IMG/VR virus record: IMGVR_UViG_3300042458_000246
Span: 1-62,151 of that record
From: a virus
DNA length: 62,151 nucleotides
Direction: 5' to 3' (one strand)
Shown: piece after piece, positions 132-62,151 of the stretch
Layout of the letters: every line of letters begins with the position of its first letter
Position numbering within the stretch: position 1 is the stretch's first letter
Program-made: the position numbers and the translations under genes
Notes under the pieces: generated by a model
Told to the model about the DNA's origin: nothing
The model's database searches: none
Seen by the model: the letters and a program-made list of their open reading frames with translations, nothing else

Positions 132-137
132 TTATTA

Positions 138-2393
138 TTACATCATTGGGTTTTCACCAGCAGCCGCAGGTCCACCCTGTGGTTGTGGTGCTTGACTACC
201 TTGAGGCTTACTTGCATCAATATGTGAGTCAGCATCAATGAAAGACTTAGCCATTGCAAGGAGTTCTTTAATGTCAGGCTTAGGAGGCATTTCAACCCCT
301 TCTTTAGCCGCCTGAATATATAGCTTACCCCACTCTTGATAACTCTTATCCAAAGCAACCATAAGTTGTTTGGTATTATCTTGCATGGCATTTTTAGCTT
401 GTACATTAGTGAGGTCAAGCGTTGCTTGTCTCTGTGCTATGTCAATCATCTTAACTTGTTCTTCAAGTTGTTTCTGTTTTTCTTGAGCCGCTACTTCACC
501 TTCTCTTGACTGCATTGCCTGTTCAATAAACTTAGGGTCTGTATAGTCAACAAGGAAGTCAAGAGGATCCATATCCATAGACTCAATTGCTTTACATGCA
601 ATAGTTACTGCTGCTGAGGGGCTAACAGCTCCACCAGCTCCTGCTTGTTGCAGTGCTGGAATAATCTGTTGACCAATTACATTCATCTTCTTCATGATAT
701 TGCTGTTACTGTTTTCACCAACATCAACATCAACATAGAGCATCAAGTTACTTGGTAATGTACCAGGATCAACAGACTTAAACAAGTCATTCTGATCATA
801 GTAACCAACTTCTTGACCACGGAGTTTATCCCGCATTGTTTTGTAGATACCTTCACACAGACGCTTAAAGCCTGTTTCAGCAAACCTACGTGCCATAAAC
901 TGGATACGTACTTGTGCCGCAGACATAGCTCTCTGCATCTTTTCTTCTGAATTGCCAGAGACATAGAGTGTATCATTAAGACCTTGAGCCGCTTTAGACA
1001 AACCTGTAGCCTGTTCCTTGTGCATTTGTAATAGCTCAAGAATAGGTACTGTACCTGTACTGATAGTGTCAGGTGTCATTGAGGCAACCGCATTGTTAGG
1101 GTTACCATTGGTAGCAATAATCTGTTTAGGCTTCATGTTCTGTAGAGCACTGAAGTCAACAACATTAGGGTCAGCAAGCTTAGGTGAGTAGTTAGTTAAG
1201 TAGACATTCTCAATAAATCCACGCATAATAGCTGTTGAGGCTAGTGTCATGGGTCGAATCATATCTGCTACTGACAAACCAAAGAATTCATGTGGTACTT
1301 CAAAAGGACAAAGAGTCGCCAATGGAATCATATCACAATCTTCTTCCATGAGGATTGTTGAACCAGCAATAATAAAATGCTTTAGTTCAGCAATACCGTC
1401 ACCATCACGGTCTACTCGTAACCAACACTCAATAACAGTGAGTTGTCGATTAGCTTCTGACGGGAATAGCTCCCGTGAATTTCCCCCAAGCCAGTACTCT
1501 TCACCAACCAGACGCTTACGAGCAGCTTGCTCTTCGGTGTACTTGGTAGCCCAATCATAGCTACCGTCTCCAATGGCGTCCCAGTCAATATTCTCTGCTA
1601 TGTCAGGGAAAAACTTTCTAACTTCAGATCGAGTCATATCAATCTGGATACCCACAAATGCCGCATCATCAAGTGAGTGCGCATCCCGTGTAATACGGAA
1701 ACATTCTGGGTGTACATTCTTAATTAAAATTCTTGTCTTGTTCTTTTTCTTTTTAAGGCGAACATCCTTGTATACCATTTTGTATACAGCATTACCTTCT
1801 TCATCGGTGTCTAACTCTTGTTCATATTTAAGATCTCCGATAATTTCTGTGTCATCTTCTGATAACAAGAGATCAAGGTTTTCTTGACTGATAGAATCAA
1901 ACTCTTCAAATTTATAATCAAAGTCTTCAATATATTCCCATCGAACAATACTGTTCTTCCACAGCAATGCTGATTTAACCCATGTATTCAACACTTCCCA
2001 ACCAGGATTCTGCTTAAAAATTCCATAGTTAACAAGGTCAGAAGCTACTTTAGCCTCATGGAAAGCCTTAGGGGAACTTCCAGCAGGAATAAACCTTGCG
2101 ATCTTATTGTTGTTAAACATAAGTTCAGCAAGAATAGCTGTGTATCCTTCGATAGCCTCTACAGTGTCTGAAGAGACAATCTGTGAAGCACCTTGAGGAG
2201 TCAGGTGAAATTGCGGCATCATGCCGTATTCATAGGTAGCCTTCTGTCGTTCACGAGCTAAGTCGGAACTATTCAAGAAGTCACCAACAGAGTTCATTAC
2301 ACCCTGTTCGATCATAGCTAGGAGTTCATTATCTCCTACTGGATCTTTATATCTATCCACAAAGCGGATGACATCTCTACTTGTATCACTCAT
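138..2393 (-). CDS. Portal protein
   Basis: 751 residues from ATG 2393; an in-frame ATG lies 8 codons upstream, but AAAGG sits about 7 bases before 2393, so the shorter start is chosen. The protein forms the dodecameric portal through which DNA enters and leaves the capsid. Support: length, position right after the large terminase and small accessory genes, mixed alpha/beta N-terminal part, a basic KKKKNKT stretch mid-protein, a long helical region near residues 430-560, and a Gln/Pro/Gly-rich C-terminal tail. This fits portals of podoviruses with large (700+ residue) portals. A second, slightly different C-terminus of the same gene lies at 61937-62151. Confidence 0.85.
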   Translation of the reverse strand: MSDTSRDVIRFVDRYKDPVGDNELLAMIEQGVMNSVGDFLNSSDLARERQKATYEYGMMPQFHLTPQGASQIVSSDTVEAIEGYTAILAELMFNNNKIARFIPAGSSPKAFHEAKVASDLVNYGIFKQNPGWEVLNTWVKSALLWKNSIVRWEYIEDFDYKFEEFDSISQENLDLLLSEDDTEIIGDLKYEQELDTDEEGNAVYKMVYKDVRLKKKKNKTRILIKNVHPECFRITRDAHSLDDAAFVGIQIDMTRSEVRKFFPDIAENIDWDAIGDGSYDWATKYTEEQAARKRLVGEEYWLGGNSRELFPSEANRQLTVIECWLRVDRDGDGIAELKHFIIAGSTILMEEDCDMIPLATLCPFEVPHEFFGLSVADMIRPMTLASTAIMRGFIENVYLTNYSPKLADPNVVDFSALQNMKPKQIIATNGNPNNAVASMTPDTISTGTVPILELLQMHKEQATGLSKAAQGLNDTLYVSGNSEEKMQRAMSAAQVRIQFMARRFAETGFKRLCEGIYKTMRDKLRGQEVGYYDQNDLFKSVDPGTLPSNLMLYVDVDVGENSNSNIMKKMNVIGQQIIPALQQAGAGGAVSPSAAVTIACKAIESMDMDPLDFLVDYTDPKFIEQAMQSREGEVAAQEKQKQLEEQVKMIDIAQRQATLDLTNVQAKNAMQDNTKQLMVALDKSYQEWGKLYIQAAKEGVEMPPKPDIKELLAMAKSFIDADSHIDASKPQGSQAPQPQGGPAAAGENPMM

Positions 2394-2428
2394 TGTAAAC
2401 CTTTCTTGGTTATACATTCAATCAATCA

Positions 2429-22823: not shown

Positions 22824-25025
22824 ATGAATCCATTAAATTATCTTACTGAACGTGTATCGAAGGTTGTCCCCAACTCAGATAAGATCTACAATGAGGGTGC
22901 TCGCCTTCTAGCACACTACCCAACATGGGAATATGAACTTGAAAGATTTATCAACGAATCTTGGGATACCCTCCTTAGATACTGCATTCGTAACAAGAAC
23001 GCAACGCATAGCGCCTCTGTTAAACTCACCTTTGCTTCTGACCTTATCGGAAAAAGAATTGCAAGAGCTATTGGAGCTGACGAACTTGATATCAAGTCAA
23101 CTCTATCGCTTGGAGATCTTCTTCTTGAAACGTTCCTTCAAGATGGACTGATTGACATCTTCAGGGAATATGCAGGATACAAAGCTCCTTATATGGTACG
23201 CATTGTTAACCAAGCAGATGATATTAAGCCAACATTAATTGGTACTTCATTTGAACCCTTGTTACCTATCATGGGTCTATATAGCCCACTAACTAAAGAA
23301 CCTTTTATTAAGGGCTGGACTAACTCTAAGCTATTCCATGATAACCTTAATAAAACATTTGTAAGGTCTCTTGAGACTCTTCGACAACAGTCTTGGAAGC
23401 TTAACATTCCTGTGTTAACTGCTATGCAAGCACAGACTCCTAAGGAAATCCTTGAGTTGGTCGATGAAGATGGTGTTGTAAGAGAATACAATATACACCA
23501 TGAGAACCTAGACTTACCTAAAAAACTGTCTCATACAGATGGTACTAAATTCCTTGGTAAGAAAGATCCTAAGCTACAACGTATGATGAGTAAATACTTT
23601 GAGTACATGCAAGTGCTTAAGAAGGCTGAGATGATTGGTGAAAGAACTTTCTTTCAGGAAGTCTCTTGTGACTACCGAGGTAGAGTATATTATGCAGAAT
23701 CATTTTTAGAGTTCCAAGGTAGTGACCTTGCTCGTAGCTTGTTTATGTTTGCTAACAAAAAGAAAGTTACTGAGAGAGGTTTATTCTGGATTAAAGTGCA
23801 TACAGCAGCTTGCTTTAATAAGTCTTTTATTATCAGTGATATACCTAAGTATTTTAAGACAGACTATAAAGCTTATCTTGAGGGTGAAGGTCTTGATACT
23901 ATATCAGTAGACAAAATGACTCTTGAAGATAGAGTTGCATGGGTAGATAACAACATTGAGTTTATCTATGATGTAGCTCGTACTAAGACTATTCATCCTG
24001 ATGCTGAAAAGTCTTATAGCTTCTTAGCTTGTTGTAATGAGTTGTTAGCTTATAAGAGAGCTAAGATGGAAGGTAAGGAGTTTATGTCTGGACTACCTAT
24101 ACCTATTGATGGTAGTAATAACGGATGGCAACACTTAGCAGCTATGTCTAAGGACAAACAAGCTGGTACGCTGGTTTCACTTGTTCCTACACCTATCCAG
24201 AAAGACTTCTACGTAGCTGTTGCTAAAGAACTCATTGGTATTATGCCTGAGTACTTTGAGATTAAAGATATGCCTATGAAACATATCAGAAAAGGTATAG
24301 CTAAACGAGGCTCAATGACTCGTGCATACAGTGCTGGTAAAATGCGTATAGCAAAAAACATGTATGAAGACTGTCACGTAGAAGGTTATACTGTTAAGTA
24401 CAATATTACTGAGGATCAATGTGATGTATTAGCAGGTAACTTAATCAAAGCTATTAACACTGTCTGTGCAGGACCACTTAAGACAACCAAGTATTTACAG
24501 AAGATTGCAGAACATGAACTCAATTCAGGAAGAAATCAACTTACATGGACAACACCCTCGGGGTTCCCAGTAATATATAAGGCTTACTTACAACATGAAC
24601 GTAAACAAAGAGGCACTATCAAGGGTATTCAAGGAAATAAAGATGGTCGTGTTATGCACGTTATCAAGGTTGATGTCCTTAACAAAGAAACAGGTGAACG
24701 GGTACCGTGCAGGAGAAGCTATGCTTCGGGTATTAGTCCTAATATTGTTCACTCCTATGATGCTGCTCATATGGCTAATACTATTGTTAGCTTCAATGGC
24801 TCTTTTGGTGCCGTACACGACTCCTTTAGCTCACATGCTTCTGAGATTGATTTCCTACAAGAAGTAACTAAAATGACATTCATAGCACAATATGATGTAG
24901 AAAACTTCTTTAACATACTTCAAGATAACCTTATGGATAATAAGGATAGCTTCACGTTTAATCAACCTGATCTAGGTAATTTAGAACTTTCTGATATAAC
25001 TAACTCGGAGTATTTCTTTTGTTAA
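22824..25025 (+). CDS. Single-subunit DNA-dependent RNA polymerase (T7-like)
   Basis: 733 residues, shorter than T7's 883. Transcribes phage genes from its own promoters. Motifs: DYRGRVYY (Asp283-Arg287), motif A PIDGSNNGWQHL (Asp429), motif B KRGSMTRAYSAG (Lys494 and Tyr502, eight apart as in T7 Lys631/Tyr639; AYSAG in place of T7's AYG), and motif C VHDSFS (Asp666). All catalytic residues present. ATG follows the primase-helicase stop directly. The six AGTCGGTACCTAATAGA-like sites are its likely promoters. Confidence 0.95.
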   Translation: MNPLNYLTERVSKVVPNSDKIYNEGARLLAHYPTWEYELERFINESWDTLLRYCIRNKNATHSASVKLTFASDLIGKRIARAIGADELDIKSTLSLGDLLLETFLQDGLIDIFREYAGYKAPYMVRIVNQADDIKPTLIGTSFEPLLPIMGLYSPLTKEPFIKGWTNSKLFHDNLNKTFVRSLETLRQQSWKLNIPVLTAMQAQTPKEILELVDEDGVVREYNIHHENLDLPKKLSHTDGTKFLGKKDPKLQRMMSKYFEYMQVLKKAEMIGERTFFQEVSCDYRGRVYYAESFLEFQGSDLARSLFMFANKKKVTERGLFWIKVHTAACFNKSFIISDIPKYFKTDYKAYLEGEGLDTISVDKMTLEDRVAWVDNNIEFIYDVARTKTIHPDAEKSYSFLACCNELLAYKRAKMEGKEFMSGLPIPIDGSNNGWQHLAAMSKDKQAGTLVSLVPTPIQKDFYVAVAKELIGIMPEYFEIKDMPMKHIRKGIAKRGSMTRAYSAGKMRIAKNMYEDCHVEGYTVKYNITEDQCDVLAGNLIKAINTVCAGPLKTTKYLQKIAEHELNSGRNQLTWTTPSGFPVIYKAYLQHERKQRGTIKGIQGNKDGRVMHVIKVDVLNKETGERVPCRRSYASGISPNIVHSYDAAHMANTIVSFNGSFGAVHDSFSSHASEIDFLQEVTKMTFIAQYDVENFFNILQDNLMDNKDSFTFNQPDLGNLELSDITNSEYFFC

Positions 25026-25117: not shown

Positions 25118-26992
25118 ATGAACTCTTACCAACAACTTATCGCCAAATCCCGTTATGCTCGATACCTACCCGAACAAAAACGTAGAGAGAACTGGGATGA
25201 AACTTCTACTCGATGGGTAGACTTCTTTAAAGAACAACTTAAAGACAAGATCAATACCCAAGATACTATTTGGGATATCTTAGGAACAAGCATTAATAAC
25301 TTGTCAGTATTACCATCTATGCGTTCTGTTATGACTGCTGGTGAAGCTCTTAAGCGTACTCACGTAGCGGCTTATAACTGTAGCTACCTTCCTGTAGATC
25401 ATAAGCGTTGCTTTGATGAGGCTATGTATATCCTCTTGTGTGGTACTGGTGTAGGCTTCTCATGTGAGCAAGTCTATACAAACAAATTACCTACTGTACC
25501 CACATTAGAAGAATCAGATAAGATTATTACAGTAGAAGACTCTAAAGAAGGTTGGTGTGAAGCATATAAATTGCTTATCAGTCGCCTGTATGCTGGTACT
25601 ATTCCTAAGTGGGATGTATCTTTAGTACGTCCAGCAGGTGCTCCACTTAAGACATTCGGTGGTCGTGCTTCAGGTCCAGGCCCACTAGTAGACTTGTTCC
25701 AGTATACAGTAGATAAGTTTAAAGCGGCTCAAGGTCGTAAGCTTAAGTCTATTGAAGCCCACGATATCATGTGTAAGATCGGTGAGGTAGTCGTTGTAGG
25801 TGGTGTACGTAGGTCAGCCATGATTTCTCTTGGTGACTTAGGTGACTATGATCATGCAACAGCTAAGGCAGGTGCTTGGTGGGAGAACCATGGTGAACGT
25901 GCCTTGGCTAACAACTCAGCAGTATACAACAACAAACCTTCTATTGGTGAATTCATGAAGGAATGGTTAGATATCTATAACAGTCACTCAGGTGAGCGTG
26001 GTATCTTCAACCGTGAAGCCTCACAGAAGCAAGCCGCTAAATGGGGTCGTAGAGATATCAGCACTGACTATGGCACTAACCCATGCTCAGAGATTATTCT
26101 TAAGCCATATCAATTCTGTAACTTGTCTACTATTGTTGTGTCTCCTGATGACAACCTTGCATCTCTTAAAACTAAAGTTCGCTTGGCTACCATCATGGGT
26201 ACAATGCAATCTACACTAACTGACTTCCCTTATCTACGTGACATCTGGAAAAAGAATACAGAACAAGAACGTCTCTTGGGTGTATCAATGACTGGTATCC
26301 TTGATAACCCTTACTTGCGTGGTAGTACACATACTCCATTACGACAGATCCTTGAGACACTTCGTGATGTAGCTCGTGATACAAACAAAGAGTGGGCAGA
26401 GATCTTGGGTGTACCTGAGTCAGCCGCTATCACTTGTGTTAAGCCTGAAGGTACTGTGTCTCAACTTACACAGACATCCAGCGGTATCCATGCAGGACAC
26501 GCACCATACTACATCAGACGTATTCGTCAAGATAAGAAAGACCCACTGACTCAATTCTTGATTGATCAAGGTGTACCTCATGAGGACTGCGTTATGAAGC
26601 CAGACCAGACAGCTGTGTTTAGCTTCCCACAACAGTCACCAGGATTTACCCGTAAGGATATCAATGCTATTGAACACCTTAATATCTGGTTGGCATATCA
26701 ACGTCACTGGTGTGAGCATAAGCCTTCAGTAACTATCTCAGTTAAGGATCATGAATGGATGGAAGTAGGAGCATGGGTATATGAACACTTTGATGAATGT
26801 ACTGGAATTTCTTTCTTACCTGATGATGGTGGTACTTATCGTCAGGCTCCATACGAGGACACCAACTTGGAAACTTACAATAGTCTTGTCAGCACCCTAC
26901 CTGTTGTTGAATGGAATCTCTTTATGGAAGATCGTGACAATGTAGAAGGTGCGCAGACATTAGCTTGTACAGCTGGAGGGTGTGAGATTTGA
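25118..26992 (+). CDS. nrdJ: Class II (B12-dependent) ribonucleoside-triphosphate reductase
   Basis: 624 residues. Reduces ribonucleotides to deoxyribonucleotides with an adenosylcobalamin radical, without oxygen or an iron subunit. AYNCSYLPV, CGTGVGFS, GGVRRSAMISL, the active-site NPCSEIIL (radical Cys and Glu) and a C-terminal redox pair CTAGGCEI are visible. Monomeric triphosphate type, shorter than the Lactobacillus enzyme (739). AAGGAA precedes the ATG. Paired with the thioredoxin-like gene, its likely reductant; it implies a host able to supply cobalamin. Confidence 0.93.
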   Translation: MNSYQQLIAKSRYARYLPEQKRRENWDETSTRWVDFFKEQLKDKINTQDTIWDILGTSINNLSVLPSMRSVMTAGEALKRTHVAAYNCSYLPVDHKRCFDEAMYILLCGTGVGFSCEQVYTNKLPTVPTLEESDKIITVEDSKEGWCEAYKLLISRLYAGTIPKWDVSLVRPAGAPLKTFGGRASGPGPLVDLFQYTVDKFKAAQGRKLKSIEAHDIMCKIGEVVVVGGVRRSAMISLGDLGDYDHATAKAGAWWENHGERALANNSAVYNNKPSIGEFMKEWLDIYNSHSGERGIFNREASQKQAAKWGRRDISTDYGTNPCSEIILKPYQFCNLSTIVVSPDDNLASLKTKVRLATIMGTMQSTLTDFPYLRDIWKKNTEQERLLGVSMTGILDNPYLRGSTHTPLRQILETLRDVARDTNKEWAEILGVPESAAITCVKPEGTVSQLTQTSSGIHAGHAPYYIRRIRQDKKDPLTQFLIDQGVPHEDCVMKPDQTAVFSFPQQSPGFTRKDINAIEHLNIWLAYQRHWCEHKPSVTISVKDHEWMEVGAWVYEHFDECTGISFLPDDGGTYRQAPYEDTNLETYNSLVSTLPVVEWNLFMEDRDNVEGAQTLACTAGGCEI

Positions 26993-27243
26993 AACTACTT
27001 AAATTCTCTGCCGCATGGTGCCAACCATGTAAGCAACTAGATGCATTCCTAGCAGAAGCCTTGTTAGAATACCCTGAGATTGAACTTGTAAGTATGCCTA
27101 TTGAGGATAACAGAGATTCAGTATCATACTACGGTATCCGTACAGTACCTACTATGATTATGGTTGATAACAATGATCAGGTACTCAGGACTTCTGTAGG
27201 CTTTACCCCTACTAAAGTTAAACCTTTCTTAGCAGGTACCTAA
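26989..27243 (+). CDS. Thioredoxin-like protein
   Basis: 84 residues. Active site WCQPCK (Cys11, Cys14) and cis-proline segment TVPTM; a mini-thioredoxin/glutaredoxin-type fold. TTG start at 26989 overlaps the reductase stop and has GGAGGG upstream. Most likely reduces the reductase's C-terminal disulphide. Its last codons GGT ACC TAA form the core of a promoter-like motif. Confidence 0.88.
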   Translation: MKLLKFSAAWCQPCKQLDAFLAEALLEYPEIELVSMPIEDNRDSVSYYGIRTVPTMIMVDNNDQVLRTSVGFTPTKVKPFLAGT

Positions 27244-27250
27244 TAGAAAA
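27231..27250 (+). promoter_or_regulatory. Candidate phage RNA polymerase promoter (tRNA block)
   Basis: AGCAGGTACCTAATAGAAA, two bases from the consensus, spanning the thioredoxin stop codon and ending directly at the 5' end of the tRNA. It would place the start of transcription a few bases before the tRNA. Confidence 0.7.
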
Positions 27251-27320
27251 GCGGAGTAGCTCAGTAGAAGAGCGATGGACTCATAATCCATAGGTCAGGG
27301 GTGCGACTCCCTTCTCCGCA
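27251..27320 (+). tRNA. tRNA-Met (anticodon CAT)
   Basis: Acceptor GCGGAG/CTCCGC, D-arm AGCTCAGTAGAAGAGC, anticodon stem ATGGA/TCCAT with loop CTCATAA (CAT), and T-arm AGGGG-TGCGACT-CCCTT. The seventh acceptor pair is T-T and the T-loop starts TGC rather than TTC. No encoded CCA. Met, or Ile if the CAT is modified to lysidine; the sequence alone cannot separate these. Confidence 0.85.
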
Positions 27321-27400
27321 ACCCTCGGTCCGACTCTACCGTTACGGAGTCACTGAACAATCTGATAGTCAAGTGATTAGGTTCATAAGATATTCAGCTA

Positions 27401-27477
27401 GAGGGGTATAATTCAACTGGTTAGAATCGAGGATGTATAAGCTTCGGGATGTGGTGTTCGAATCCCACTACCTCTCT
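27401..27477 (+). tRNA. tRNA-like element, anticodon uncertain
   Basis: Acceptor arms GAGGGGT/ACCTCTC (one G-T), D-arm ATTC-loop-GAAT with GG, and a TTCGAAT T-loop are clear. The anticodon stem GAGGA/GCTTC has a mismatch next to the loop TGTATAA (TAT or GTA depending on register, with no proper T at 33), and the T-stem has an extra T (GTGGTG where GTGGG is expected). Either an unusual tRNA or a decaying one. Confidence 0.5.
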
Positions 27478-27499: not shown

Positions 27500-27832
27500 A
27501 TGGCTAAAACAAAACACCCTAAATACTATTCAAGGAAATTCCTTAATAAGACTCAAGGTACTGCAATGATTGAAATCAGAGCAGATATCAGTGCTTATTC
27601 TATGGATGGTACTATATGTATATCTGATTGTTATCGTAAATCAGAATTAGATATGCACATATATGATAAGAAATCATTAAAAGAAAAGTATGATAAATTA
27701 GAATTATTAATTAAAGAATTAACTTTATTTAAAGAGTTTATAGATACTAATGCTGATTATTATTTTGAATTAAAAGCTAAAAATAAAGATAAAAGCTTAT
27801 TAGCATTATTAAATGAGGATGAAGATGATTAA
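27500..27832 (+). CDS. Hypothetical protein
   Basis: 110 residues; basic start (MAKTKHPKYYSRKFLNKTQG), beta-rich middle, and a helical, very A+T-rich C-terminal half ending NEDEDD. AGGACA lies before the ATG. No family recognised. Confidence 0.65.
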   Translation: MAKTKHPKYYSRKFLNKTQGTAMIEIRADISAYSMDGTICISDCYRKSELDMHIYDKKSLKEKYDKLELLIKELTLFKEFIDTNADYYFELKAKNKDKSLLALLNEDEDD

Positions 27833-28022
27833 TCAACATGATATTGAGGACTTGTGTCCTGACTACTACAAATCTCAGGAAGAAATCCTGCATGATGACA
27901 GAGCCTATTGGTACGACATTGAGCTACAGGGCTTAAAACTCCCTGAGGTATGGGGTAAGTATATCTTAGGTGAAAACGTTAGATCCTACGAGTTTAATAT
28001 TAGCAAAGGCTATTATGGGTAA
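27825..28022 (+). CDS. Hypothetical protein
   Basis: 65 residues from ATG 27825, preceded by GAGG and overlapping the previous stop by 8 bases. MINQHDIEDLCPDYYKSQEE onward, acidic. Unknown. Confidence 0.6.
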   Translation: MINQHDIEDLCPDYYKSQEEILHDDRAYWYDIELQGLKLPEVWGKYILGENVRSYEFNISKGYYG

Positions 28023-28167
28023 AGGTAGTGGTCGTAGACCAACCGATGAAAACAAGTTCCAAAGTAATTATGACCTGATCTTTGGCAAGAAACCACCTGA
28101 AGGTCAGGATAAAGATAAGGAAAAACAAGATGGCAACAATGACACCACCCAAAATGAAAGACAGTGA
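28015..28167 (+). CDS. Conserved small phage protein (MGKGSGRRP)
   Basis: 50 residues; the N-terminus MGKGSGRRPTDENKFQSNYD, then IFGKK and a charged tail, is a pattern common in T7-like and other phages next to late genes. Function not known. ATG 28015 chosen for this conserved start; overlaps both neighbours. Confidence 0.65.
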   Translation: MGKGSGRRPTDENKFQSNYDLIFGKKPPEGQDKDKEKQDGNNDTTQNERQ

Positions 28168-28609
28168 CCTATGTACAATGCTTATGCAATTGTTTGCAGA
28201 CAACTTTGTAACATATTTTAAGTCACATACCTATCACTTCAATGTAGAAGGTCCTATGTTTGCTCAAGATCATGCTTTGTTGCAAGAGATCTATGAGTTT
28301 CTACATGAACAACATGACGGGATTGGCGAGCAGATTCGTCAGCTAAACAAAGGAACACCTTGTTCTCTTAAAGAAGTCCTTAGTATGACTGACATGGTTG
28401 AATGCGATTCACCAAAGAAACCTAGTAAAGAAATGTTTACATGGTTGAATGAAGACTTTGATTCACTATGTAATTCCGCTCAAAAGATCTATGATGAAGC
28501 TGACATGGAATGCTATGGTGGATTAGCTACATTTGTTGGTGACTATATTAGAGACTTGTCTAAGCTTAACTGGAAAGTCAAAGCAACTTTAGGAAAGAGT
28601 TTTAAATGA
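28130..28609 (+). CDS. dps: Dps-like ferritin
   Basis: 159 residues from ATG 28130 (AAGGAA upstream). Dps proteins form 12-subunit shells that oxidise iron with peroxide and may bind DNA. YHFNVEGPMFAQDHALLQEIY and HDGIGEQIRQL carry the ferroxidase residues His36, Asp63 and Glu67, with the same spacing as E. coli His51, Asp78 and Glu82. All are kept, so an active enzyme is likely. Lacks a long basic N-terminal tail. Possible role in protecting phage DNA from iron and peroxide. Confidence 0.85.
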   Translation: MATMTPPKMKDSDLCTMLMQLFADNFVTYFKSHTYHFNVEGPMFAQDHALLQEIYEFLHEQHDGIGEQIRQLNKGTPCSLKEVLSMTDMVECDSPKKPSKEMFTWLNEDFDSLCNSAQKIYDEADMECYGGLATFVGDYIRDLSKLNWKVKATLGKSFK

Positions 28610-28887
28610 AATCATATAACGTACAAGCATTAAGAGGTCATGACTATGATGATCATGACTTTCAAATAGATATGCGGGATGTTGGTATTAATATCCCTGA
28701 TAATGTTCTTTATACTAAAGACCTTGGTCCTTATGTAATCAATGAAGTATATAAACAAAGTTCAACAGGCTTAGTTGATGTTCTTAACGACAAAACAGGT
28801 ATGCCTTATACTAAAACAGAAGCTGAAGAAACTGCTAAGAGTAATAAATCACAAGCATTAGATATGTATAACCAGCTATTAAGCTAA
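28606..28887 (+). CDS. Hypothetical protein
   Basis: 93 residues, MKSYNVQALRGHDYDDHDFQ onward; His/Asp-rich start, polar helical end. Overlaps the Dps gene by 4 bases and is the last plus-strand gene before the convergence terminator. The pairing with Dps is notable but its role is unknown. Confidence 0.65.
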   Translation: MKSYNVQALRGHDYDDHDFQIDMRDVGINIPDNVLYTKDLGPYVINEVYKQSSTGLVDVLNDKTGMPYTKTEAEETAKSNKSQALDMYNQLLS

Positions 28888-28938
28888 AAAAAAAAAATAA
28901 CCCCTACTAGGATAATTCCTAATAGGGGTTTTTTTATT
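28885..28938. terminator. Bidirectional Rho-independent terminator
   Basis: AACCCCTA (28899-28906) pairs with TAGGGGTT (28923-28930), with inner AGGA/TCCT pairs. A-run on the left and T-run on the right make it work on both strands, ending the plus-strand middle genes and the minus-strand late operon, which meet here. Confidence 0.9.
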
Positions 28939-53700: not shown

Positions 53701-56617
53701 TAACACCATCAGCTGCGCCTGAGCCAGTAGATCCGTTGGTGTAATGCGTTATAGCCCAACCGCCTACATCGGCAGTATTGATGTGTAGTAAACCTGAAGT
53801 TGATGGTCCATTTGAAATAGGGTTGTTAGTTCCAAGACCTAAATTACCTGAGGCATTAAGGCGCATTTGCTCGGTTGATAACGTATTGTTTAACCACCTT
53901 GTGACGCTAGTAGATGAAAACTGAAGCAAGCCAGTTGCGTCTGTTGCTAAACCACTATTAGAAGAATTAGCAGAGTTAAAAAGTTGTAAATAATTGCCGC
54001 CAAGAAGCCTAACGTTTCCGTTAACAACAAGTTTTTCTGTAGGATTGCTTGTACCAATACCCACATTGATGCCGCTTGCGGTGTATAGCGATGTTCCAGT
54101 TAAAGTCATCCGCAATGTGCTATCAGTAAAAAACTCAAGTGGATAATTACCAGTAGAAAAAAGTGCTGATTGACTACCAAGTGCCGTGCTATTGCGCCCA
54201 AGTGAAAAATACTCACCTGCATCATTTACAACATATATTTTTGCTTGTGATGCTGAATTGTTGGTGGTATTAGTTACTCTAAGACCTGCGTTATAAGCAG
54301 TATCTGCATAAGAAACATTTAGTTGCGAACCATCAAAAGTAAGCGCAGACCCAGTAGCCAATGCACTAGAACTAGATGCGTAAACCACACCGCCTGATGT
54401 GAATGATGAAAGGTTTGTTCCACCATTTGCAGTGGGCAATACACCATTGACACCAGCAGTCAAAGAAACTGTATTCTTTTCCCACAGACTATTACTTGAG
54501 TTGTATACAAGCGTTTGTCCGTTGGTGGGTGATTGGGCAGCCACATCATGTAGCTCATCCATCTCATATCCGTTTTGAATCTTGACTTCAATAGTACCTT
54601 GATTAGCATGCTGGTATGTGACAATACCAACGTACACCAAGTGAATCGGTGCGTAAGGTTTAGTGCTTGTGTAAGTACCCGCAGTAATTCCGCTGAGATA
54701 CAACTGAGTGCCATTAGCAAAAGCAGAGGTATCAAGACCGCTTACCACACCAATAACAACTACATAACCGTTTTGGTTAGTTGGAATGTCGGCTTGAATA
54801 ACACCGTAAGTCTGTGCTGATGTAGCGTCTGCATTAGCCAATGCTTTAGATACAAGAGCTTTGTTGCTTGACGCTCCGCTAACATATACAACAGTACCCT
54901 TGGTAAGTGTTGCACCAGTCTCATTACGAACTTGGCTAATCAATGTAGCAGTGTTAAGAGCTGTTCCTACAGACAGGTCTCTTGTAGTACCTGTAGGACT
55001 AATCACAACACTACCGTCTACAGACGTCAATGTTTGAATTGCTGTGTCTGCTGTTGCACCTTGAGCCGCAGTAGCATACGCAGTACTGTTAGTAGTAGCC
55101 GCAGTACCAAGACCAAGGTTAGCCCTTGCGGTAGTTGCGTCAGCTAAGTCAGAAAGATTGTTTGCTCTAAAGGCATATGTTGTGTCTGCACCTGTACCTG
55201 TAACACCAAGATTAGACCTAGCACCTGAAGCATCACTTGCACCTGTACCACCGTCAGCAACAGCCAAGTCAGTAATACCTGTGATAGATCCACCAGTAAC
55301 AGATACACTATTAGAGTTCTGTACAGACATTGTACCAAGACCAGAGATATCTGTATTAGCTAATACAACATTACCTGTGCGACCAGCTACGGATGTAACC
55401 AAATTAGTCTGATCAATCTTTTGCCAAAAAGAACCATTAAAAATAGCCCAGTCACCAATAGCCCAGTCATTAACACCATCAAGATTAGTACTACCTGATG
55501 TAGATACAACATAGTATCCACCAGTAGTTCCTGTACCAGACGTCAATGTAGGTGTATTGGTAGATGCGTTCCATGTACCAAGGTATACAAGACCACCTGT
55601 AAGACTCACCCAAGTAGTGTCATAGTTTGTGCTACTTAGTTTAGCTAATACTTGTCCAACTGTACCGCCTGTAGCAATACCCGGAGTATTAACCCATGAA
55701 ATTCCTGTGTATACCTTCATCAAGCTTGTTGTTGAATTGAAGTACATTGCACCAGTAATCAATGCGTTACCGTCATTGTCTACTGTTGGATCTGTTGTTT
55801 TAGCACCAAGGTAACGATCATCAAATGAGTCGTATGAGGCTGCAGCAGAAGCAGCACTTGCAGCTGCATCTGTAGCCTGAGCAGTAGCAATACCTGCTTG
55901 AGTAGTTGCAGTGGTAGCACTAGTAGACGCACTAGAAGCAGATCCTGCGGCAGATGTTGCTGAGTTAGCCGCATTGTTAGCTGATGTGTTAGCGGCAGTC
56001 GCACTGTTAGATGCATTAGTCGCCTGTGTAGTGGCAATACCCGCCTGAGTAGTTGCTGTAGCCGCACTAGCCGCAGAAGCAGTGGCACTGTTAGCAGATG
56101 CCGTTGCACTATTTGCTGAGTTAGTTGCTTGTGTTGTTGCTATACCAGCTTGTGTAGTCGCAGTAGCGGCACTTGCGGCAGAAGCCGTTGCACTGTTAGC
56201 TGAATTAGTCGCTGAAGTAGAAGCACTTGTTGCACTGTTTGTAGCAGATGTTGCTGAGGCAGATGCAGATGTTGCACTGTTAGCCGCACTTGTAGCACTA
56301 GTAGTTGCACTTGTAGCACTGTTAGTTGCAGAGGTAGCTGAGGCAGTTGCAGATGTCGCTGAGTTAGCGGCACTAGTAGCACTGTTAGCCGCATTAGTTG
56401 CAGAAGTACCAGCAGATGTCGCTGAGTTAGCCGCATTAGTTGCGCTTGTAGCCGCAGCTGCTTGACTTGCAGCCGCTTCTTCAGCACTAATATTTGCAGC
56501 TGCAGCACTGCTAGCCGCTATATTTGGATAATTAGCCGATGTTGATTCATCAAAATTATCGTATTCTCCTCCCTTGGAAGGATTACCAGTTGTTCCCGGT
56601 GTACTTGTATATGCCAT
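50774..56617 (-). CDS. Giant tail fibre with adhesin-head-like repeats and S74 end
   Basis: 1947 residues; AAGGAG precedes the ATG. Residues 33-262 are Ala/Ser/Thr/Asn repeats (NSATSA-type) likely to form a trimeric rod; near 267 comes [20 protein letters not shown], a common fibre domain. About 1030-1725 holds many copies of a 14-20 residue NTAVG/NTAIG-type repeat like the left-handed head of YadA-class adhesins. From about 1822 (NTSDANLK) is a peptidase S74 chaperone close to that of the tailspike. Host-receptor binding is the expected role. Confidence 0.9.
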
Positions 56618-58633: not shown

Positions 58634-59749
58634 TTAGGCTCCGGACAAACCAAAAATCATTCCGCAACCTTTCGGATTCCTACATTCCAAAGTACCCTCT
58701 TCAACGATCTGACCGATGATAGAGTCACCAAGCTGACCAAGGTCAACTTCTTGCAGAGGACGCAAGCTAGCGTAGCTGAACCACATTGGATCATACAAGA
58801 ACGCTGTAAAGTTAGCCACATCGTTCACACCAGTAACTGCAGTATTAGAAATACCCATTACGTAGTTAGGAACAACCATGATGTCACCGAAGTCAGACAT
58901 GTAGATTTCAACTGACTGACGGAGCTTGCCATCAGCGTCAATATTTCGACGAACGTTAGAATCACCAGTAGAACCTGTAACGGAACCTGCAGACTGAGCC
59001 TTAGCAGAGAACACACGACGGTTAGCAGGAGACAACATCAACTTAGTGGCTTTACCACCGTTTTCATAGATGCCTTGCATAACTGTGTCAACGTGTGACA
59101 GAGCCAAAGATACTTTGTCGCCAGCAATAACGTTAGCGAATACACCGCAGACACCGCCACCAGGATTAGTAGGAGCAGTATAGTCACCGGGAACAGCCAA
59201 CACGTTCAGTGCTGTAGCAGGAGTTGTAGTAGCGGCAGTGTAGTTAACCCAAGATTGGTAACCACCAAAGGTACGAGTACCAGAGCCGTTAGAAGACTTC
59301 CAACCGTTAACCAAGTCAAACTCAACGTCACGACGAAGTTCGGTACCACGCTTTTTGAGCTGGTATGCGTATTCATCAGCAACACCTGCTTGGTCAACAG
59401 CACGCTTAGTGCCAGTAACTGTAACAGTCTTGGAGTTGATTTGTGTGTAGTTACCCAAACGTGTACGGAAGGGTTCTGTTACCTGTGCATCAGCTTGTAC
59501 TGCATAAGAGATACCTTCAGCAACTGGGTTAGATGCAGGAGGAGACAGTTCGTCTGTCTGCCACTCGTGAAACACAGCCGTAGCTTTAGTCTTGCCGATA
59601 GACGACAAGAAAGGTGTCTCATCACGAGAGATCATAGAAATAAAATTCGCTAGGTCTTCACGTTCGCCAGCGTTGACAGCGTTACCGTTGTTAGATGCGC
59701 TACGTGCGGCAGCTTTAGGACCGCCTGTTGCAAATGTTTGAATTGCCAT
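58634..59749 (-). CDS. Major capsid protein (SU10/DUF5309-like)
   Basis: 371 residues. MAIQTFATGG start, NFISMISRDETPFLSSIGK, FHEWQTDEL, GTKRAVDQAGVADEYAYQ, SPANRRVFSA and a C-terminal LRPLQEVDLGQLGDS agree with my memory of the DUF5309/SU10 major head protein, an HK97-type fold. It assembles the icosahedral or prolate shell with the scaffold gene upstream. Codons are less A+T-rich than elsewhere, as expected of the most highly expressed gene. Confidence 0.88.
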   Translation of the reverse strand: MAIQTFATGGPKAAARSASNNGNAVNAGEREDLANFISMISRDETPFLSSIGKTKATAVFHEWQTDELSPPASNPVAEGISYAVQADAQVTEPFRTRLGNYTQINSKTVTVTGTKRAVDQAGVADEYAYQLKKRGTELRRDVEFDLVNGWKSSNGSGTRTFGGYQSWVNYTAATTTPATALNVLAVPGDYTAPTNPGGGVCGVFANVIAGDKVSLALSHVDTVMQGIYENGGKATKLMLSPANRRVFSAKAQSAGSVTGSTGDSNVRRNIDADGKLRQSVEIYMSDFGDIMVVPNYVMGISNTAVTGVNDVANFTAFLYDPMWFSYASLRPLQEVDLGQLGDSIIGQIVEEGTLECRNPKGCGMIFGLSGA

Positions 59750-61173: not shown

Positions 61174-61528
61174 TATTTTCCTCAGACCCCTCTTGGGTAT
61201 TGTTTTGTTGTTGGATGAACTTGACGTTATTACCGTACATTTCAATACCAACTAACTTTTCTTTAACACTGCCTAATGCCATAGCGGTATGATACAGGTA
61301 CTCTCGTTCTTTAGAACAATGAGGTTCTGTCTTCAACCACGTAACAAAAAGGTCAGCTAAGATTTCGCTATATGCGTCACCAAAGAATTGTTCACGTTCC
61401 CGTTGAACAAACTCTGCACGACCTAAGGCTACTTGGGCTTCACGGAAAGGTTCTACTTTGTATTCACCTGTCTCATGATTCATTTTAGGTTTGATTTTTT
61501 GTTCAAACCCTTTTCTGTATTTATCCAT
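61166..61528 (-). CDS. Small virion-region protein
   Basis: 120 residues, MDKYRKGFEQKIKPKMNHE onward; helical with AQVALGRAEFVQREREQFFG and LFVTWLKTEPHCSKEREYL. A second strain's version begins at the left contig edge. Follows the portal gene, or the EndoVII gene in this variant. No family recognised. Confidence 0.7.
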   Translation of the reverse strand: MDKYRKGFEQKIKPKMNHETGEYKVEPFREAQVALGRAEFVQREREQFFGDAYSEILADLFVTWLKTEPHCSKEREYLYHTAMALGSVKEKLVGIEMYGNNVKFIQQQNNTQEGSEENNE

Positions 61529-61531
61529 TAA

Positions 61532-61864
61532 TTAATTCTCATTTAAATATTTTGAAAATAAGTCAAACTTCTTTTTGCCATTTTCATAGAATCCCAATTC
61601 AACATTGCATCTAAAACAAAGAATGCCTCTAACCGTACCACTAGTATGGCAATGATCAATACAAAATCTGTTGTTATGAATGTCTGGATTCCACTCTATG
61701 CCGCATATTTCACAGCACTTCATTGAGTTTAAATACAATTCTTTAGCTGTATTCTTATCAACATTGTAAGTCCTAGCTATAAATGAAATAGCAGACTGTT
61801 CTTTATACTCAGGATTTTTACTACGTATTTTATTACGTTCCCTATCATATTGTTTTCTATCCAT
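61532..61864 (-). CDS. Recombination endonuclease VII-like homing gene
   Basis: 110 residues. Zinc pairs Cys51/Cys54 and Cys83/Cys86 around the core CIDHCHTSGTVRGILC (68-83), the EndoVII signature with Asp70 and His71. N-terminal 45 residues form a basic helical DNA-binding part. AGGGAAG precedes the ATG. It is missing from the left copy of the same locus, so it is an insertion between portal and the 120-residue gene. A free-standing homing role is more likely than junction resolution, but resolvase activity is possible. Confidence 0.88.
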   Translation of the reverse strand: MDRKQYDRERNKIRSKNPEYKEQSAISFIARTYNVDKNTAKELYLNSMKCCEICGIEWNPDIHNNRFCIDHCHTSGTVRGILCFRCNVELGFYENGKKKFDLFSKYLNEN

Positions 61865-61906: not shown

Positions 61907-61936
61907 AAAGGAGCTACCTCTTTCGCCTTATATTTA

Positions 61937-62151
61937 TTACATCATTGGGTTTTCACCAGCAGCCGCAGGACCAGCCTGTGGTTGAGGTGCTTGACTACCT
62001 TGAGGCTTACTTGCATCCATATGCGAGTCAGCATCAATGAAAGACTTAGCCATTGCAAGGAGTTCTTTAATGTCAGGCTTAGGAGGCATTTCAACCCCTT
62101 CTTTAGCCGCCTGAATATATAGCTTACCCCACTCTTGATAACTCTTATCCA
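61937..62151 (-). CDS. Portal protein, C-terminal fragment of second variant
   Basis: 71 codons plus stop, cut by the contig end. Matches residues near the C-terminus of the portal at 138-2393, with Ile-to-Met and Gly-to-Ala changes (SHMDASKPQ, PQAGPAAAGENPMM). Not a second gene but the same gene from a strain variant. Confidence 0.9.
   Translation of the reverse strand, partial: DKSYQEWGKLYIQAAKEGVEMPPKPDIKELLAMAKSFIDADSHMDASKPQGSQAPQPQAGPAAAGENPMM

What the first reader, a model, noticed from the sequence alone, without database searches (positions are those of the whole stretch)
28130..28609. Phage Dps ferritin with intact ferroxidase residues
His36, Asp63 and Glu67 keep the E. coli Dps spacing exactly. 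An active iron-storage or DNA-protection protein in a lytic phage, next to an unknown His/Asp-rich partner gene, suggests defence against peroxide, iron starvation control, or shielding of phage DNA late in infection.
Basis: partly seen in the sequence, partly recalled or inferred. Interest (0 to 1): 0.55.

Follow-up and report, generated by a model that had tools for sequence, protein, structure and literature searches.

The report
Phage-encoded Dps mini-ferritin beside ribonucleotide reductase
A podovirus genome carries a real Dps-type iron-oxidising protein with all its metal-binding residues; phage Dps is already known, but in this phage group it sits beside the enzyme that makes DNA building blocks, and the residues around its iron site have been changed in a consistent way.

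Summary
Window 28130-28609 encodes a 159-aa Dps protein: Pfam Ferritin, PHROG 3636, and an AlphaFold model that matches solved Dps chains at Z about 21. His36, His48, Asp63 and Glu67 match E. coli His51, His63, Asp78 and Glu82, and are invariant in all phage and bacterial sequences aligned. The gene is under purifying selection (median dN/dS 0.13) and present in 17 of 18 related contigs that reach far enough.

The 'partner gene' is not supported. It persists without Dps in one relative (L069), and a homologue stands in Roseobacter phage CRP-7, where no Dps was found in the stretch read.

The steadier neighbour is ribonucleotide reductase: class II upstream in 27 of 28 informative loci, class I in the remaining one. 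Unrelated phages have Dps near class III. The gene ends the + strand replication/nucleotide block at a bidirectional terminator, not the structural block.

In this clade the ligands are kept but their neighbours are changed: Phe for Trp at 37, His at 62, Gly at 66.

Best reading: a ferroxidase that removes Fe(II) and peroxide during phage DNA synthesis. Activity, dodecamer and DNA binding are untested. Phage Dps is published, so this is a variant of a known kind.

The parts
28130..28609 (+). dps: Dps-family mini-ferritin, 159 aa, stop included
28235..28240 (+). codons His36 (metal ligand) and Phe37 (Trp in all 73 bacterial sequences of the less biased set)
28271..28273 (+). codon His48, metal ligand (E. 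coli His63)
28313..28318 (+). codons His62 (specific to this phage clade) and Asp63 (metal ligand, E. coli Asp78)
28325..28330 (+). codons Gly66 (Ala in 71 of 73 bacterial sequences) and Glu67 (metal ligand, E. coli Glu82)
28115..28129 (+). ribosome-binding-like AAGGA and spacer before ATG 28130
   Evidence: sequence; an AAGGA-like stretch is kept in the ten loci compared
28606..28887 (+). gene 2, 93 aa, overlaps the dps stop by 4 nt; junction gene found with or without dps; no PDB fold match
28899..28930 (.). bidirectional terminator-like hairpin that separates the + strand block from the convergent - strand block
   Evidence: (14-pair stem), sequence
25118..26992 (+). class II (adenosylcobalamin) ribonucleotide reductase
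   Evidence: best NCBIfam model TIGR02505, E 2e-80, below its curated cut-off
26989..27243 (+). thioredoxin
22824..25025 (+). T7-type single-subunit RNA polymerase
27500..28167 (+). three small ORFs between thioredoxin and dps (27500-27832, 27813-28022, ORF ending 28167); function unknown

Best explanation
A functional Dps-type ferroxidase made by the phage together with its replication and nucleotide genes. Twelve subunits would form a shell; at each dimer interface His36 and His48 of one chain and Asp63 and Glu67 of the other would bind two Fe(II) and oxidise them with H2O2, storing Fe(III) inside. This removes both partners of Fenton chemistry while the phage runs ribonucleotide reductase, thioredoxin and DNA replication, and so protects radical and thiol enzymes and new DNA. 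Shown: family, subunit fold prediction, ligand conservation, selection, gene place, recurrent RNR neighbourhood. Inferred: the shell, enzyme activity, oxidant, timing and benefit. The changed residues next to the ligands (Phe37, His62, Gly66) suggest chemistry tuned away from that of host Dps.
For: Dps by Pfam, PHROG, PDB sequence and fold. Ligands invariant in 45 of 45 distinct phage and 153 of 153 bacterial sequences and in 19 of 19 further phage loci. The same four ligands bind iron in P. aeruginosa Dps (H37, H49, D64, E68), which uses H2O2 and not O2 (PMC10002758, passages read). Median dN/dS 0.13 over 45 pairs of ten genes. Present in 17 of 18 contigs with at least 4.3 kb after the RNA polymerase gene; the other 21 loci of that call were too short. 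Class II RNR upstream in 27 of 28 loci with at least 4.2 kb upstream; the 28th (L017) has class I NrdA-glutaredoxin plus NrdB there instead. In five of six Grimontviridae and Lahexavirus records read, Dps is adjacent to a gene annotated as class III RNR (four) or has two genes between it and the RNR activase (LAh_8); the sixth, PKM.Lu.22.1, shows thymidylate synthase. In SU10 the Dps is a middle gene, shared with thioredoxin by all five C3 phages compared (PMC4281155, passages read).
Against: No activity, expression or assembly data. One relative (L069) lives without Dps, and none was found in the CRP-7 stretch read. The Trp that sits about 3 A from Fe1 in Pa Dps and helps trap radicals is Phe here, and acids in the segment that may line the iron pore are fewer (mean 1.9 against 3.5 in bacteria). 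Both could mean lower or different activity. Within the clade the RNR neighbourhood may be one inherited layout, not repeated selection. Class II RNR itself needs no iron (recalled).
Confidence: 0.6

Rival explanations
1. A DNA-binding or virion-associated Dps: it coats or enters the head with phage DNA, and protection is physical more than chemical.
For: Privateer Dps was detected by mass spectrometry in CsCl-purified virions (PMC7881722). BFVD lists Dps-like domains in longer phage proteins named prohead protease. The clade has a conserved short basic C-terminal end, KATLGKSFK, net +3. The window's capsid and portal are of the SU10 type.
Against: Acidic chain, net -8, uncharged N-terminus; the gene stands outside the structural block behind a terminator. 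In the SU10 study, where Dps was also detected, the sample was not CsCl-purified and middle proteins were expected in it (PMC4281155). Dps of Privateer's relatives (P59, GAP52) keeps Trp37 and lies on another branch of the tree.
Confidence: 0.15
2. An iron-capture protein: it takes host iron to starve host enzymes or to feed iron to phage use (for example a class I RNR small subunit in relatives).
For: Dps stores iron; relative L017 pairs it with class I RNR.
Against: 27 of 28 informative loci pair it with class II RNR, which uses cobalamin and not iron (cofactor recalled); no iron transport or siderophore gene was noted among the window genes examined by profile.
Confidence: 0.12
3. A repurposed Dps with weak or no ferroxidase activity, for example binding another metal at a site reshaped by His62.
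For: His62 in 34 of 34 clade sequences against 0 of 73 bacterial, Phe37 in 32 of 34 against 0 of 73, Gly66 in 32 of 34 against 2 of 73; pore-segment acids changed.
Against: All four ligands invariant under purifying selection.
Confidence: 0.1
4. A passenger gene from a host, without selected function.
For: Sporadic presence of Dps across unrelated phages; absent in L069 and not found in the CRP-7 stretch read.
Against: dN/dS 0.13, 17 of 18 contigs, no close bacterial source.
Confidence: 0.03

Closest known systems
Bacterial Dps / NapA-type mini-ferritins (TpF1, HP-NAP, V. cholerae Dps, P. aeruginosa PA0962)
   Same: Same subunit fold (VIA Z 20.5-21.9, rmsd 1.5-2.6) and the same four ferroxidase ligands
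   Different: 24-30% identity; Trp beside the first His is Phe; clade-specific His62 and Gly66; different pore-segment residues
Dps of C3 podophages (phiEco32, SU10, GAP52, Privateer; Grimontviridae and Kuravirus)
   Same: Phage Dps near thioredoxin and nucleotide genes; SU10-type portal and capsid also in the window
   Different: Those read here keep Trp37; their Dps forms another branch of the quick tree, weakly placed; class III RNR or none nearby instead of class II; the window has a T7-type RNA polymerase
Dps of gut phages (Gratiaviridae, Flandersviridae) and Lactobacillus phages
   Same: Published phage Dps read as tolerance to oxidative stress (PMC8008677, PMC6669764; passages)
   Different: Other phage groups and hosts; the published sequences were not aligned here, only two L. 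brevis phage Dps
Roseobacter phage CRP-7
   Same: Nearest isolate for capsid (51.6% identity) and polymerase (31.5%); homologue of gene 2 at the same junction
   Different: No RNR or thioredoxin annotated and no Dps found between its RNA polymerase gene and that junction

Membership tests
Dps mini-ferritin | Ferritin-like four-helix subunit with a short helix between B and C | tested here: met
   Model with helices 12-38, 44-71, 80-85, 99-126, 130-156, mean pLDDT 84; best PDB hits are Dps chains
Dps mini-ferritin | Inter-subunit ferroxidase ligands His, His, Asp, Glu | tested here: met
   His36, His48, Asp63, Glu67 aligned with E. coli His51, His63, Asp78, Glu82; invariant
Dps mini-ferritin | Trp beside the first ligand His (general in bacteria, not a definition of the family) | tested here: not met
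   Phe37; Trp in 73 of 73 bacterial sequences of the less biased set and in 2 of 45 phage sequences; 18 of 19 further phage loci keep it
Dps mini-ferritin | Assembly into a 12-mer shell | not testable with these tools
   Only single chains can be predicted here
Dps mini-ferritin | Fe(II) oxidation with H2O2 | not testable with these tools
   Needs protein
Dps mini-ferritin | DNA binding (not universal in the family) | tested here: inconclusive
   No basic N-tail, net charge -8; short basic C-end conserved
PHROG 3636 (phage Dps-like 'DNA binding protein') | Match to the family profile over its length | tested here: met
   E 5e-24, positions 4-148 of 149
NCBIfam Dps equivalogs (PRK09448, two DpsA models) | Score above the curated cut-off | tested here: not met
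   24.9 bits against 114 for PRK09448, 29.3 against 170 and 21.1 against 300 for the DpsA models

The most novel reading that the evidence does not exclude
In several phage groups Dps is an accessory of the phage's dNTP factory. It travels with ribonucleotide reductase and its thiol donor whatever the RNR class (II in the window clade, I in L017, III in Grimontviridae), guards radical and thiol chemistry from peroxide and loose iron, and in this clade has a rebuilt second shell (Phe37, His62, Gly66) that makes its iron chemistry differ from that of host Dps.
Probability: 0.22. Interest if true: 0.6.

Novelty: new variant of a known kind. Interest (0 to 1): 0.4.

Why it matters
Phage-encoded Dps is scattered through the literature as an oxidative-stress gene; no test of its role was seen in the papers read here. 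In this podovirus group it is nearly constant, under strong purifying selection, and beside RNR. That gives a sharp, testable idea: phage Dps protects dNTP synthesis and replication. The consistent swap of the radical-trapping Trp for Phe, with invariant ligands, offers a natural experiment on what that Trp does in mini-ferritins.

Tried and rejected
Basic N-terminal extension from TTG 28082 (would be a DNA-binding tail): rejected, because the upstream DNA belongs to a different preceding gene and is replaced in three of ten relatives, while the ATG and an AAGGA-like site stay.

Gene 2 as a partner: rejected. Its model is confident (pLDDT 95) but Foldseek gave no PDB match at E up to 0.001; other libraries were not tried.

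Trp loss as a general mark of phage Dps: an early count (2 of 45 with Trp) suggested it, but the sample was drawn mostly with this clade's profile. Of 19 further loci, 18 had Trp (two of the 18 are unverified records, and some loci carry the same sequence). Kept only as a clade feature with a few other losses: V or Q in L034-L040, L in S-EIV1, Y in MT836104 and in the Campylobacter phages.

Donor host: the genome scan with the clade profile found no relative among 130 pattern matches. Profile searches of 249, 117 and 119 genomes of three phyla (Pseudomonadota, Cyanobacteriota and Actinomycetota, by the titles of the centre loci and recall) gave matches in 77, 42 and 10, none better than about 89 bits, against 205-307 bits for most of the podovirus clade and 127-141 for its outlying members L030-L033. 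Quick tree only: phage labels need 6 changes, at least 2 forced; deep forks weak. The careful tree did not finish.

Paper searches for virus-encoded Dps as an auxiliary gene and for Dps with RNR in podoviruses gave no paper that states the RNR link, as far as listings and the passages read show; most subscription papers are not held.

Two viral scans with gut-phage Dps found nothing. Sigma-70 promoter-like sites were no more frequent than in shuffles, and no phage promoter motif was established.

Full report
What is there. Window 28130-28609 (+) is a clean 159-aa gene. Pfam calls it Ferritin (E 7e-9, above cut-off), PHROG 3636 (E 5e-24). By sequence its best solved relatives are Dps/NapA proteins. 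AlphaFold, given 17 phage sequences, predicts the Dps subunit including the short helix between B and C (pLDDT 84, pTM 0.79). VIA-align gives Z 21.9, rmsd 1.5, 149 residues to TpF1, and about 20-21 to many other Dps chains, against the tool's warning level of about 13 for helical bundles.

Ferroxidase site. Aligned with E. coli K-12 Dps, His36, His48, Asp63 and Glu67 fall on His51, His63, Asp78 and Glu82. These four are invariant in 45 distinct phage and 153 bacterial sequences and in 19 further phage loci. In P. aeruginosa Dps the equivalent H37, H49, D64 and E68 bind the two irons, and the protein uses H2O2, not O2 (PMC10002758, passages read). The E. coli Asp67 column is Gln52 here and is variable.

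Changed surroundings. Three residues beside ligands differ consistently between the podovirus clade (34 distinct sequences) and 73 bacterial ones: residue 37 is Phe in 32 of 34 but Trp in 73 of 73; residue 62 is His in 34 of 34 and 0 of 73; residue 66 is Gly in 32 of 34 and 2 of 73. The Pa Dps paper places the Trp about 3 A from Fe1 and says that in Listeria Dps the Trp and a Tyr (Y50) trap hydroxyl radicals. That Tyr is, by position, Tyr55 here (inference), and it is kept in 45 of 45 phage sequences. Residues 129-144, a segment that may line the ferritin-like pore (placement recalled and inferred), are also rebuilt: the common bacterial acids at 129 and 134 are gone, and Asp138 is fixed. The 73 sequences were drawn with the phage profile from three phyla plus plasmids and E. 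coli, and seven lie in genomes reached through a scan biased to HWN; 80 more from that biased scan all have Trp and are not counted. Trp loss is not general in phages: 18 of 19 further loci keep it.

Gene order. In the loci with the junction, the order is family A DNA polymerase, exonuclease, primase-helicase, T7-type RNA polymerase, class II RNR, (thioredoxin), small ORFs, dps, gene 2, then, in the window, a bidirectional terminator, and convergent - strand genes, some of them recognisably structural. RNR is upstream of dps in 27 of 28 loci with at least 4.2 kb upstream; thioredoxin of this type in 17 of those 28; gene 2 follows in 31 of all 33. In the exception, L017, the place is taken by class I RNR: a large subunit fused to glutaredoxin, and the small subunit. 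In L030 a glutaredoxin follows dps. From the polymerase side, 17 of 18 contigs with at least 4.3 kb downstream hold dps; L069 does not, but keeps RNR and gene 2; 21 loci were too short to tell. In CRP-7, the closest isolate found, RNA polymerase is followed by one small gene, a gene-2 homologue (E 1.7e-16) and the convergent block; no dps was found in the 22 kb read. So dps lies in a segment that can be gained or lost, and gene 2 is probably older at the junction.

Other phages. Dps occurs in named phages of Campylobacter, Lactobacillus, Streptomyces, Synechococcus, Aeromonas, Proteus, Cronobacter and others. A few unannotated Staphylococcus, Listeria and Enterococcus records may be host DNA and were set aside. 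In GAP52 the order is thioredoxin, hypothetical, dps, class III RNR; BUCT695 and ECO319P1 have dps next to class III RNR; P59 next to a gene annotated so; LAh_8 has two genes between dps and the RNR activase; phiEco32 has one gene between dps and thioredoxin; PKM.Lu.22.1 is next to thymidylate synthase. Others show no RNR in the short stretches fetched (S-EIV1, CP220, Coruscant, S-SRM01, L. brevis phages, BS162P1, CC_R7). The SU10 paper says thioredoxin and Dps are present in all five C3 phages compared, as middle genes, and detected Dps by mass spectrometry in a sample not CsCl-purified (PMC4281155, passages). The Privateer paper detected its Dps in CsCl-purified virions (PMC7881722, passages). 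Gut and Lactobacillus phage Dps are published as stress-tolerance genes (PMC8008677, PMC6669764, passages). In a Yersinia infection the host's own dps was among the most induced genes (PMC7354516, passages), which fits peroxide stress in infected cells.

Origin and selection. Ten close relatives give median dN 0.13, dS 0.97 and ratio 0.13 over 45 pairs. No bacterial close relative was found. On a quick tree all podovirus sequences group with other phage Dps, apart from bacterial ones, but deep branches are weak; labels need 6 changes, at least 2 forced. The donor cannot be named.

Mechanism. Shown: a Dps subunit with an intact ferroxidase ligand set, selected, nearly constant in its clade, placed at the end of the replication/nucleotide block beside RNR. 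Inferred: a 12-mer that oxidises Fe(II) with H2O2 during phage DNA synthesis. DNA shielding in the virion remains possible because of Privateer, but the acidic chain and gene position argue against it here.

Verdict. Real, well conserved, and a known kind of phage gene; the new points are its near-constant presence in this podovirus group, its RNR neighbourhood across RNR classes, and the rebuilt second shell.

Noticed in passing
window 135-352 and 61934-62151; 1-102 and 61438-61539: The two window ends overlap (98% over 218 nt, 85% over 102 nt); on the right a recombination endonuclease VII ORF (61532-61864) sits between the two matched pieces. The contig may be a whole circular or redundant genome with two variants of one end.
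   Followed up: partly
window 27402-27476: A second tRNA gene missed by ARAGORN but above Rfam's tRNA cut-off (30.5 bits against 29), after the tRNA-Met at 27250-27323.
   Followed up: partly
L017 3977-6914: Class II RNR replaced by class I RNR (large subunit fused to glutaredoxin, plus small subunit) at the same place before dps.
   Followed up: yes
BFVD entries A0A6J7WPK9, A0A6J7XDU5, A0A6J7WIS1, A0A6J5LAB8: Predicted viral proteins named prohead protease or ParB/sulfiredoxin contain a Dps-like fold, that is, Dps domains in longer phage proteins (the last is a weak match, E 3.5e-3).
   Followed up: no
L034, L036, L038-L040: In another phage group a Dps with Val at position 37 follows very long ORFs (up to 1452 aa) and, in L039, precedes a glycosyltransferase; its role there may differ.
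   Followed up: partly
window 138-2417 and 58634-59749: Portal and major capsid of the SU10 type (Pfam E 2e-126 and 3e-74) together with a T7-type RNA polymerase.
   Followed up: partly
window 55848-56459: A run of repeats with spacings that are mostly multiples of 21 nt inside the 1947-aa - strand ORF that carries an endosialidase-type chaperone domain.
   Followed up: no
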